Shown one piece after another: positions 43,725 to 46,964 of a DNA stretch of 64,000 nt; the stretch's first letter is position 1, and every line of letters starts with the position of its first letter. Location of the stretch: the NCBI GenBank assembly GCA_036273515.1, contig DASUHM010000043.1, forward strand, positions 1 through 64,000. The letters run 5' to 3'. Source of the DNA: Gaiellales bacterium (lineage in GTDB: Bacteria > Actinomycetota > Thermoleophilia > Gaiellales > JAICJC01). Below the pieces are notes generated by a model. The model searched no databases, was not told the DNA's origin, and saw nothing but the letters and a program-made list of their open reading frames with translations. Both the position numbers and the translations under genes were made by a program.

Positions 43725-44852
43725 GTGAGCGTCTACCTCGATCACGCGGCGACGACGCCCCTGGGCCCCGACGCGCGGGCGGCGATGGAGCCGTACCTGT
43801 CGGAGCGGTTCGGGAACGCGTCGGAGCCGCACGCCTACGGCCGGGCGGCGCGGGCCGCGCTCGAGGCGGCCCGGGTCACGCTGGCCGAGCTGCTCGACGC
43901 GGAGCCGGGGCAGGTCGTCCTGACGTCGGGCGGTTCGGAGGCCGACAACCAGGCCGTGTTCGGCCTCGCGGGGGCTGAGCCGGGCCGGATCGTCGTGAGC
44001 GCGATCGAGCACCCAGCGGTGCGTGAGCCGGCCCGTGAGCTCGAGCGGCGCGGCTTCGAGGTGGCCTGGGCGCCGGTCGACGGCGACGGCGTGATCGACG
44101 CGGAGGCGTTCGAGGCGCTCGTGCGCCCGGGCGATCGCCTGGCGGCTGCAATGTGGGCGAACAACGTCACGGGCGCAGTCCAGCCGGTCGACCGGCTGGC
44201 CTCCGCCGCGGCGGACGCGCGGGTGCCGTTCCACTGCGACGCCGTGCAGGCCGCCGCCTCGTTCCCGGTCGGCTTGCGCTCGTCGGGCGCGGCGTTCCTG
44301 GCGCTCTCGGCGCACAAGCTCGGCGGACCCAAGGGCGTCGGCTGCCTGGTCGCCCGCGAGCCCGGCCGGATCCCGCCCCTCGTCTGGGGCGGGGGCCAGG
44401 AGCGCGGCCTGCGTTCGGGCACCGAGAACATCCCCGGTGCCGTCGGCTTCGCGGCGGCGCTGGCCGCGACCCGGGCGGCGGACGACCGCCGGGCGGCCCT
44501 GCGTGAGCGGCTCGAGGCGGCGCTCCGGGCTGAGATCACCGTCGTCTCGGCCGGCGCCGAGCGGCTGCCGGGCCACCTGCTCGCGCTCGTGCCCGGGATC
44601 CGGGCCGAGCTGCTCGTGCTCGCCCTCGACCGGGAGGGCTACGCGGTCGCGGCGGGTTCTGCCTGCGCCGCGGGCGACGCCGAGCCGAGCCATGTCCTGG
44701 TCGCCCAGGGCATGTCGGCCCGCGACGCGCGCAGCGTCGTTCGCGTCTCGCTCGGCCCCGGGACGACCGAGGCGGAGGTCGACGGCTTCGCCGCCGCGTT
44801 CGCCGGCTGCCTGGGCCGGCTGCGCGAGGGCGGCCTCGCCGAGGCGGTGTGA
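43725..44852 (+). CDS. Cysteine desulfurase (NifS/IscS family)
   Basis: A 375-residue PLP enzyme. VYLDHAATTPLGP is the N-terminus, the PLP lysine is in ALSAHKLGGPKGVG, RSGTENIPG precedes the C-domain, and the persulfide Cys is in GSACAAGDAEPSHVL, a short-loop arrangement as in IscS/NifS. It removes sulfur from cysteine to form an enzyme persulfide. It overlaps the IscU-MnmA fusion by 4 nt (GTGA), so sulfur is very likely delivered there for tRNA thiolation. Confidence 0.94.
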   Translation: MSVYLDHAATTPLGPDARAAMEPYLSERFGNASEPHAYGRAARAALEAARVTLAELLDAEPGQVVLTSGGSEADNQAVFGLAGAEPGRIVVSAIEHPAVREPARELERRGFEVAWAPVDGDGVIDAEAFEALVRPGDRLAAAMWANNVTGAVQPVDRLASAAADARVPFHCDAVQAAASFPVGLRSSGAAFLALSAHKLGGPKGVGCLVAREPGRIPPLVWGGGQERGLRSGTENIPGAVGFAAALAATRAADDRRAALRERLEAALRAEITVVSAGAERLPGHLLALVPGIRAELLVLALDREGYAVAAGSACAAGDAEPSHVLVAQGMSARDARSVVRVSLGPGTTEAEVDGFAAAFAGCLGRLREGGLAEAV

Positions 44853-46273
44853 CGGTGTACTCGGCCGCGACCGTCGACCATGCGCTCGCGCTCCGCTTCG
44901 CGGGCGCCGCCGGTCCGGACGCCGTCGCCGGCGAGGCGGGGGACGCCGTCTGCGGCGATGCCGTGCGGATCGAGCTGCGCGTCGTCGACGGGCGCATCGC
45001 CGCCGCCCGCCATCGCACGTTCGCCTGCCCTCATGCCACCGCTGCCGCGGAGCTCGCCTGCCGCCTCGCCGAGGGCCGCGACCTGCTCCACGCGGCCACG
45101 ATCGGCGCCGGCGAGCTCGAGGCCGAGCTGACGCCCGCCGCGGGCAACCGCGGCTGCGTCGCCCTCGCGGCCGACTCGCTGCACGAGGCACTGGCGGCGT
45201 CGCTCGAGACCGCCGGGCTCCCGCTCAGCGATGGGCGGGTCGCCGTGGCGATGTCGGGCGGTGTCGACTCTGCGGTCGCCCTGCTGAAGGCAGTCGAGGC
45301 GGGGCTCGAGCCGGTCGGGGTCACGCTGCGGCTGTGGATCGACCCGGGCGCGCCTGACGGCGAGCGGGCGTGCTGCTCGCCGCGGTCCGTGCGGGCCGCC
45401 CGGGAAGCGTGCCATGCGCTCGGCGTGCCGCACTTCGGGCTCGACCTCCGCGAGCAGTTTCGCCGCGACGTCGTCGAGGACTTCCTCGGCGGCTTCCGGG
45501 CCGGCCTGACTCCGAACCCGTGCATGCGCTGCAACGGCGGCTTCCGCTTCGCCGCGCTGGCGGAGTTCGCCGACCGCGTCGGCGCGCCCCGGCTCGCCAC
45601 CGGCCACTACGCGCGCGTGCGCCGCAGGGACGGGCGCACGCTGCTCGTCCGCGGCGCCGACCCGGCCAAGGACCAGTCGTACATGCTCGCGTCGGTGCCG
45701 GTCTCGATCCTGGAACGGTGCTGGTTCCCGCTGGGCGAGCAGACCAAGGCGCAGACGCGGGCCGAGGCGGGCTCCGCCGGCCTGGCCGCGGCCCGGCGGC
45801 CGGAGAGCCAGGACGTCTGCTTCGTCGGCGGCGGCGACCACCGCGCCTTCCTCGAGCGGCACGGCGGCGCCGGCCGGGCGGGGGAGATCGTCGACGCCGG
45901 CGGGCACGCGCTCGGCAGGCATGGCGGCGTGCACCGCTTCACTCCTGGCCAACGGCGCGGGATCGGCGTCGCCGCGAGCGAGCCGCTCTACGTGCTCGAG
46001 GTGCAGGCCGGGCGGGGCCGGGTCGTCGTCGGCCCGCGCGCTCAGCTCGAGCGCCGCACGGTGACCGTCGCGCCCGGCCGGCTGCTCGCGCCGGCGTCGC
46101 GGGTGCAGGCGAAGCTGCGCTACCGAACCGAGCCGGTGTGGGCGACGGTGCGGCCCGACGGCGAGGGCTTCAGGCTCGACCTGGACGAGCCGGTGGTAGG
46201 TGTCGCGCCCGGCCAGACCGCCGTCCTCTACGACGACGACGCGGTTGTCGGCGCGGGCGTGATCGCCCCCTGA
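44849..46273 (+). CDS. mnmA: IscU-like scaffold fused to tRNA 2-thiouridylase MnmA
   Basis: A 474-residue fusion. Residues 1-125 are IscU/NifU-N-like with all three cluster ligands at IscU spacing: Cys35 in AVCGDAVRI, Cys60 in TFACPHATAAAELAC and Cys103 in NRGCVALAADSLHEAL. From residue 130 comes MnmA: PP-loop VAMSGGVDSAVAL, catalytic Cys region NPCMRCNGGFRF, GHYARV, KDQSYMLASV, second Cys in ESQDVCFVG, and the C-terminal beta domain. MnmA makes 2-thiouridine at position 34 of Lys/Glu/Gln tRNAs. The start is GTG 44849. The fusion suggests sulfur or Fe-S handover within one polypeptide. Confidence 0.92.
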   Translation: MTVYSAATVDHALALRFAGAAGPDAVAGEAGDAVCGDAVRIELRVVDGRIAAARHRTFACPHATAAAELACRLAEGRDLLHAATIGAGELEAELTPAAGNRGCVALAADSLHEALAASLETAGLPLSDGRVAVAMSGGVDSAVALLKAVEAGLEPVGVTLRLWIDPGAPDGERACCSPRSVRAAREACHALGVPHFGLDLREQFRRDVVEDFLGGFRAGLTPNPCMRCNGGFRFAALAEFADRVGAPRLATGHYARVRRRDGRTLLVRGADPAKDQSYMLASVPVSILERCWFPLGEQTKAQTRAEAGSAGLAAARRPESQDVCFVGGGDHRAFLERHGGAGRAGEIVDAGGHALGRHGGVHRFTPGQRRGIGVAASEPLYVLEVQAGRGRVVVGPRAQLERRTVTVAPGRLLAPASRVQAKLRYRTEPVWATVRPDGEGFRLDLDEPVVGVAPGQTAVLYDDDAVVGAGVIAP

Positions 46274-46314: not shown

Positions 46315-46710
46315 ATGCACCTCGCCTTACTCGCCACCTCGACCGACATCTGGCACTACGCGCTGGCCGTGTTTCTCCTGCTCACCGGCATCGGTGCCTG
46401 CTTCGCCCTCGTCCGTGCCGGGATGACGCTCGGGCGGGTGAACATGGTGCTCGACGGGGTGATGAAAGAGCTCGTCCCGATGCTGGCGAAGGTGTCGACC
46501 TCGCTCGACCACGTGAACGAGGAGCTCGACAAGGTCGGCCGGATCACCGACTCGGCGACCGACGCGACCGCCAAGGTCGACGCGACGGTGCGCACGGTCT
46601 CGGAGGCGATCTCGAAACCGTTCCGGGCGGTGTCCGGGTTCACGGCGGGGATCTCGCACGGGTTCGGGGTGTTCAAGAACAAGCGCGACCAGCGCGGGGG
46701 CGTGGTGTGA
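46315..46710 (+). CDS. DUF948-like membrane protein
   Basis: A 131-residue protein. One N-terminal helix (YALAVFLLLTGIGACFALVRAG) is followed by an amphipathic coiled-coil-like region with DHVNEELDKVGRITDSATDATAKVD repeats, the layout of DUF948 general-stress-type proteins. It overlaps the next small gene by 4 nt. Function unknown; possibly envelope-associated. Confidence 0.75.
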   Translation: MHLALLATSTDIWHYALAVFLLLTGIGACFALVRAGMTLGRVNMVLDGVMKELVPMLAKVSTSLDHVNEELDKVGRITDSATDATAKVDATVRTVSEAISKPFRAVSGFTAGISHGFGVFKNKRDQRGGVV

Positions 46711-46964
46711 AGCGCGGGCTGGCGCTGTCGGTCGCCCTCTCGGCGGCCGCAGCGGCGCTCTACAAGCGGGCACAGCACGTGGCCGAGACGGAGCAGCGCA
46801 GCCTCGGCGAGGTGCTCCGCGAGATGCCCGGCCGGATCTCGCACGACCTGCGCACCCTTCCCGACGACCTGCGCACCGCCGCCCATGAGGGCAAGACCGC
46901 GGCGAAGCGCCGCTCGGCCGAGGTCGAGGAGGACTACCGCCAGGCCGCCAACCCGACGCCCTAA
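46707..46964 (+). CDS. Small hypothetical protein paired with the DUF948 gene
   Basis: An 85-residue protein from GTG 46707 (GTGA overlap). A short hydrophobic start (RGLALSVALSAAAAALY) leads into a charged helix-rich body (LGEVLREMPGRISHDLRTLPDDLRTAAHEGKTAAKRRSAEVEEDY), reminiscent of YtxH-type proteins. Coupling to the DUF948 gene suggests that the two products interact. An inverted repeat follows its stop. Confidence 0.7.
   Translation: MKRGLALSVALSAAAAALYKRAQHVAETEQRSLGEVLREMPGRISHDLRTLPDDLRTAAHEGKTAAKRRSAEVEEDYRQAANPTP

What the first reader, a model, noticed from the sequence alone, without database searches (positions are those of the whole stretch)
44849..46273. IscU-type Fe-S scaffold fused to the tRNA thiolase MnmA, coupled to a cysteine desulfurase
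The N-terminal 125 residues keep three cysteines at 35, 60 and 103, the same spacing as the cluster ligands of IscU, followed by a complete MnmA. The GTG start overlaps the desulfurase stop. One operon thus encodes sulfur extraction, a scaffold and tRNA thiolation. In most bacteria sulfur passes through Tus relays or directly from the desulfurase; a built-in scaffold suggests a different relay or an Fe-S-dependent MnmA. I cannot tell whether this fusion has already been described.
Basis: partly seen in the sequence, partly recalled or inferred. Interest (0 to 1): 0.72.

Follow-up and report, generated by a model that had tools for sequence, protein, structure and literature searches.

The report
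IscU-like domain fused to tRNA thiolase
A little-known actinobacterial lineage makes its tRNA sulfur-adding enzyme MnmA with a modified copy of the iron-sulfur assembly protein IscU built in; the copy always lacks at least one of the five residues needed to assemble clusters, so it probably works as an attached sulfur hand-over or docking arm.

Summary
Window 44849-46273 encodes one protein: residues 1-129 are an IscU/NifU-N domain (Pfam NifU_N 4e-13; AlphaFold model 1.4 Å from E. coli IscU), and residues 130-474 are a complete C-type MnmA. The GTG start overlaps the stop of a type-I cysteine desulfurase.

The fusion is not a one-off. It occurs across the window's class (Thermoleophilia) and in Rubrobacteraceae. 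It most likely arose from the desulfurase-iscU-mnmA gene order still seen unfused in Clostridium and in sister family f6.

The "scaffold" reading does not hold up. IscU needs five assembly-site residues (Cys-Asp-Cys-His-Cys). All 49 unfused IscUs sampled keep five. None of 126 fused domains does; 118 keep exactly four, losing either the His (window: C35, D37, C60, C103 kept) or the last Cys, the persulfide acceptor in ISCU2. Sixty of the 126 were fetched after the pattern was seen; all 60 fit. One sister family has shrunk the domain to about 80 residues without any of the cysteines, yet keeps it under purifying selection.

Best explanation: an IscU-derived, metal-bearing, SufU-like sulfur-acceptor/desulfurase-docking module acting in cis on MnmA. 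Nearest precedent: the SufE-like domain on Plasmodium MnmA. No description of the IscU version was found in the searched open-access library.

The parts
43725..44852 (+). Type-I (NifS/IscS-like) cysteine desulfurase, 375 aa, immediately upstream; its stop overlaps the start of the fusion
   Evidence: Aminotran_5 3e-62; best NCBIfam NifS 324 bits (below the 530.75 equivalog cut-off); loop GSACAAGDAEPSHVL
44849..46273 (+). IscU-like domain fused to MnmA, 474 aa, GTG start
   Evidence: Single ORF; Pfam/NCBIfam domains; AlphaFold2 model pLDDT 94.4, pTM 0.92
44849..45235 (+). N-terminal IscU/NifU-N domain, aa 1-129
   Evidence: NifU_N 4.2e-13; phmmer to IscU chains 1.5e-11; Foldseek to IscU 3lvl_A rmsd 1.4, TM 0.85 of target
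44951..44953 (+). Cys35 codon (C1; equals ISCU2 Cys69 and SufU Cys41, the SufU sulfur acceptor)
   Evidence: C1 kept in 125 of 126 fused domains with a full N-domain
44957..44959 (+). Asp37 codon (metal ligand in IscU/SufU)
   Evidence: Alignment
45026..45028 (+). Cys60 codon (C2; equals ISCU2 Cys95)
   Evidence: Alignment
45155..45157 (+). Cys103 codon (C3; equals ISCU2 Cys138); the preceding IscU His is Gly102 here
   Evidence: Kept only in f1, f3 and most f7, plus f73; lost in the other fused families
45236..46270 (+). C-type MnmA, aa 130-474
   Evidence: NF001138 1.1e-103; Foldseek 2hma/2det
45371..45376 (+). MnmA CC motif (Cys175-Cys176)
   Evidence: Invariant in the fused alignment
45521..45532 (+). 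MnmA CxxC (Cys225, Cys228)
   Evidence: Invariant
45818..45820 (+). MnmA catalytic Cys324 (equals E. coli Cys199)
   Evidence: Invariant
44849..44852 (+). GTGA overlap of fusion start and desulfurase stop
   Evidence: Sequence read; the two genes do not overlap in relatives G213 and G150

Best explanation
The N-terminal domain is a former IscU scaffold turned into a built-in sulfur-acceptor and desulfurase-docking module. It replaces the Tus relay or the separate IscU-MnmA encounter. Shown here: the fusion, IscU fold and ancestry, C-type MnmA, gene order, the exactly-four-of-five residue pattern, and its erosion in relatives. Inferred: docking, metal binding, persulfide on Cys35, transfer to MnmA.
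For: Fold and ancestry are IscU. Unfused IscUs keep all five assembly-site residues (49/49 CDCHC); fused domains never do (0/66 in the first set, 0/60 in later-fetched sequences), and 118/126 keep exactly four: CDCH- or CDC-C. The window's set (C,D,C,-,C) equals that of SufU proteins in the same family (CDCKC), and SufU is a Zn sulfurtransferase accepting sulfur on C1 (PMC11021402, PMC10216065). C3, the persulfide acceptor in human ISCU2 (PMC11021402), is dispensable in most fused forms, while C1 is kept in 125/126. Fe-S assembly is provided separately: SUF plus SufU, or a separate canonical IscU, in nearly all checked genomes of the class. The desulfurase-IscU-MnmA order is found unfused in Clostridium and f6 and is co-induced by cysteine limitation in C. 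perfringens (PMC2940859). A SufE-like domain on Plasmodium MnmA is proposed to do the same job (PMC10219651).
Against: Family f2 keeps a folded remnant under purifying selection with none of the cysteines, so sulfur carriage cannot be the only role of the domain. f9 and f4 have lost C2 and Asp. f73 lost C1. Many fused families have no desulfurase next door. Bacillus YrvO sulfurates MnmA without any helper (PMC11784392). Metal binding and sulfur transfer were not tested.
Confidence: 0.5

Rival explanations
1. Docking or structural module only: the domain holds the desulfurase (or the tRNA or MnmA itself) in place but carries no sulfur; the desulfurase loop reaches the MnmA cysteines directly, and the retained metal site only stabilises the fold.
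For: f2 keeps a conserved, folded mini-domain with no cysteines (dN/dS 0.12-0.26 against 0.11-0.30 for MnmA). f9 and f4 lost most ligands. YrvO-MnmA needs no carrier (PMC11784392).
Against: C1 is kept in 125/126 full-length fused domains and exactly four ligands in 118/126, more than fold stability alone would seem to need. f2 may be a secondary state after loss of the original role.
Confidence: 0.3
2. True Fe-S scaffold in cis: the domain builds a cluster and loads the [4Fe-4S] site of the C-type MnmA.
For: All three IscU cysteines and the Asp are present in the window protein. C-type MnmA is reported to need a [4Fe-4S] cluster (PMC8584467). In this assembly no SufB/D and no other NifU_N were found.
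Against: No fused domain keeps the five-residue site. The third Cys is lost in most fused families although MnmA cysteines stay invariant. Relatives in the same family carry SUF and SufU, so the absence here may be an assembly gap.
Confidence: 0.13
3. Neutral relic of an operon fusion that is being lost.
For: Repeated erosion: f2, f9, f4, unfused G028 in f7; the f1 N-domain evolves faster than its MnmA (dN/dS about 0.3-0.6 against 0.24-0.36).
Against: Kept across most of a class and in Rubrobacteraceae with exactly four ligands; the f2 remnant is as constrained as MnmA.
Confidence: 0.07

Closest known systems
SufE-like N-terminal domain of Plasmodium falciparum MnmA (PMC10219651)
   Same: A desulfurase-partner fold fused N-terminal to MnmA, proposed to take sulfur from the desulfurase and pass it to MnmA
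   Different: SufE-like rather than IscU; eukaryotic plastid; partner SufS; found by structure modelling; no metal-ligand pattern in the passages read
YrvO-MnmA pair of Bacillus subtilis (abbreviated 2-thiouridine pathway)
   Same: Dedicated adjacent desulfurase and MnmA without Tus proteins
   Different: No IscU domain; direct transfer from YrvO to MnmA
iscS-iscU-trmU cluster of Clostridium (PMC2940859; L135-L144)
   Same: Same three functions, same gene order, alaS downstream
   Different: Three separate proteins; IscU keeps all five assembly-site residues
SufU (Zn-dependent sulfurtransferase of SufS)
   Same: Same four retained residues as the window protein (Cys-Asp-Cys-Cys, no His)
   Different: Standalone; structurally further (TM about 0.67 against 0.85 for IscU); a type-II desulfurase partner
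C-type MnmA, e.g. Thermus thermophilus (PMC8584467)
   Same: CC-CxxC-C cysteine set in the catalytic domain
   Different: No N-terminal IscU domain described in the sources read

Membership tests
MnmA (tRNA 2-thiouridine synthase), C-type | PP-loop SGGVDS and full-length MnmA profile above cut-off | tested here: met
   NF001138 346.8 bits against 284; TIGR00420 277 against 237; SGGVDS invariant
MnmA (tRNA 2-thiouridine synthase), C-type | CC-CxxC-C cysteine set | tested here: met
   Cys175/176, 225/228, 324 present and conserved
MnmA (tRNA 2-thiouridine synthase), C-type | [4Fe-4S] cluster and U34 thiolation activity | not testable with these tools
   Needs biochemistry
IscU/NifU-N domain superfamily | NifU_N profile above gathering score and IscU fold | tested here: met
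   50 bits against 22; Foldseek to 3lvl_A rmsd 1.4
IscU Fe-S scaffold (functional family) | Complete assembly site Cys-Asp-Cys-His-Cys | tested here: not met
   His replaced by Gly102; no fused domain of 126 has all five
IscU Fe-S scaffold (functional family) | NCBIfam IscU/NifU equivalog cut-off | tested here: not met
   49 bits against 187.9 for NifU_clost, 39 against 192.4 for iscU
IscU Fe-S scaffold (functional family) | Assembles and transfers a cluster | not testable with these tools
   Needs spectroscopy
SufU | SUF_scaf_2 equivalog cut-off | tested here: not met
   26.8 bits against 92.5; weaker structural match than IscU
SufU | Four metal-site residues Cys-Asp-Cys-Cys without His | tested here: met
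   CDCGC in the window, CDCKC in SufU of related genomes
Type-I cysteine desulfurase | Aminotran_5 fold with Cys in the long IscS-type loop | tested here: met
   3e-62; NifS profile best

The most novel reading that the evidence does not exclude
Fusion to MnmA converts an IscU scaffold into a metal-switched sulfurtransferase domain by loss of one of five assembly-site residues; separate lineages settled on two alternative four-ligand sites (Cys-Asp-Cys-His or Cys-Asp-Cys-Cys), giving a new in-cis sulfur relay for tRNA thiolation that replaces Tus proteins.
Probability: 0.4. Interest if true: 0.68.

Novelty: new variant of a known kind. Interest (0 to 1): 0.55.

Why it matters
How sulfur reaches MnmA, and whether MnmA uses persulfide or a [4Fe-4S] cluster, is openly disputed (PMC11784392). 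A natural fusion that ties the desulfurase partner to the enzyme, with four-ligand, one-ligand and no-ligand versions in relatives, allows direct tests of whether a carrier, a metal or mere docking is needed. It also gives a sharp residue rule (five for a scaffold, four when fused) for telling IscU scaffolds from IscU-derived sulfur carriers in genome annotation.

Tried and rejected
Fe-S scaffold reading: weakened by the residue pattern. Assembly or frameshift artefact: rejected (same fusion in independent genomes). The fusion as the genome's only scaffold: NifU_N and SufB/D searches of the window's genome find nothing else, but three relatives of the same family have SUF and SufU; their SUF flanking genes are scattered over several contigs in the window's genome, so gap versus true loss is unresolved. 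First alignment A1 was too diverse for the genome-contig scan. Foldseek of the f2 model showed no IscU match in its top 50, so the IscU origin of the remnant rests on profile alignment and tree position. A Fisher test on His against Cys3 was computed but is not used, as the rows share ancestry.

Full report
WHAT IS THERE. Window 44849-46273 (+) is a single 474-codon frame. Residues 10-116 match Pfam NifU_N (4.2e-13, 50 bits against a 22-bit cut-off) and residues 130-472 are MnmA above the equivalog cut-off. The PDB sequence search returns IscU chains. The upstream gene (43725-44852) is a type-I cysteine desulfurase; the fusion's GTG overlaps its TGA. hisS and aspS lie upstream and alaS downstream. 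An AlphaFold2 model built on 44 fused homologues has mean pLDDT 94.4 and pTM 0.92. Foldseek places the N-domain on IscU (E. coli 3lvl_A: rmsd 1.4 Å, TM 0.85 of target), more loosely on SufU (about 0.67), and the rest on MnmA.

HOW WIDESPREAD. Of 399 genomes of the class, 373 match the protein, though this count includes matches to the MnmA part alone. Eight families besides the window's (f3, f5, f7-f12) carry a full-length fusion in the loci read, with a degraded version in f4. Named records show the class is Thermoleophilia (Solirubrobacterales, Thermoleophilaceae) and add Rubrobacteraceae. A separate fusion occurs in family f73 of the phylum. In f6 of the same class the three genes are unfused neighbours: desulfurase, iscU, mnmA. 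Clostridium has the same unfused order with alaS downstream, and in C. perfringens iscS-iscU-trmU are co-induced by cysteine limitation (PMC2940859). The fusion therefore most likely arose by joining neighbouring genes of an ancient cluster. On an N-domain tree, fused domains separate from unfused IscUs except f73 and one split Rubrobacter gene.

CYSTEINES AND THE FIVE-RESIDUE SITE. MnmA's own cysteines are invariant in the fused alignment. The N-domain's are not: C1 is nearly universal, C2 is lost in f9 and f4, C3 is kept only in f1 (window), f3, most of f7, and f73. IscU assembles clusters with five residues; in human ISCU2 these are Cys69, Asp71, Cys95, His137 and Cys138, and Cys138 accepts the persulfide, whereas SufU uses the Cys69 equivalent (PMC11021402; PMC10216065). 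I scored all five. Unfused IscU: 49/49 have all five (CDCHC). Fused: 0/66 have all five; 58 have exactly four, either CDCH- (47) or CDC-C (11, including the window). I then fetched 60 further fused domains from other genomes, nearly all of them not read before, in the same families: 60/60 have exactly four (55 CDCH-, 5 CDC-C). Sequences share ancestry, so these are not 126 independent events; the two four-residue states need at least three changes between them on the MnmA tree. The window's set equals that of SufU proteins from its own family (CDCKC).

EROSION IN RELATIVES. Family f2, of the same order and nested among fused forms on the MnmA tree, has an N-terminal piece of about 77-85 residues with none of the three cysteines. 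Profile alignment ties it to the fused IscU domain (hhalign 96%, E 2.2e-9, colinear, with the C2 segment deleted). The model shows three strands and a C-terminal helix with high confidence. Its dN/dS (0.12-0.26) matches that of MnmA (0.11-0.30), so it is maintained. Full-protein Foldseek gave no IscU match among the top 50. One f7 genome (G028) has an MnmA without the domain.

DESULFURASE AND OTHER FE-S MACHINERY. The desulfurase is adjacent in f1, f3, f6 and Rubrobacteraceae; it was not detected beside the fusion in f2, f5, f8, f10-f12 where the flank was read. Most class genomes tested carry SUF with a SufU-type NifU_N protein; f7 and f9 carry a separate canonical IscU instead. Fe-S assembly thus does not depend on the fused domain. 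The window's own assembly shows neither SUF nor another NifU_N domain, unlike its three family members; this may be an assembly gap and remains open.

MECHANISM. Most likely the domain is a SufU-like sulfur acceptor or docking arm of IscU descent: it docks on the desulfurase, C35 takes sulfur with the help of a bound metal, and MnmA receives it in cis. The f2 remnant argues that docking or structure is at least part of the job. A cluster-building role is not excluded for the window protein, which keeps three cysteines and the Asp, but no fused relative keeps the full site. The catalytic half is a C-type MnmA, a type reported to use [4Fe-4S] on its own cysteines (PMC8584467), a point still disputed for E. 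coli MnmA (PMC11784392).

NOVELTY. Searches of the open-access library for MnmA/TrmU with IscU, NifU, SufE, fusion or Rubrobacter found no description of an IscU-MnmA fusion. The nearest is the SufE-like domain on Plasmodium MnmA (PMC10219651). Subscription papers and domain databases could not be checked, and automatic domain listings probably contain this architecture.

Noticed in passing
L014-L039, L057-L059 (family f2): A whole sister family carries a cysteine-free, about 80-residue remnant of the IscU domain on MnmA, folded in the model and under purifying selection; its function is unknown.
   Followed up: partly
L117:275-1738: A separate IscU-MnmA fusion in family f73 of the same phylum, with C1 replaced by Asp and the His lost but C2 and C3 kept; the genome also has a standalone IscU.
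   Followed up: partly
L131:3834-5262: In one Rubrobacter-like genome the IscU domain and MnmA are in different frames (split gene or frameshift); the IscU part lacks C3 like its fused relatives.
   Followed up: no
L135-L144 (Clostridium): These clusters carry a second NifU-like gene right after mnmA, so MnmA is flanked by two scaffold genes (L140 in this range is Rubrobacteraceae and does not count).
   Followed up: no
G000 (genome of the window): No SufB/D match and no NifU_N other than the fusion in a 96.6% complete assembly, although three family members have SUF and SufU; gap or real loss is unresolved.
   Followed up: partly
46315-46964: Two small genes between the fusion and alaS (a weak DUF948-like protein and an 85-aa protein); the DUF948-like gene also follows mnmA in several families including unfused f6.
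   Followed up: no
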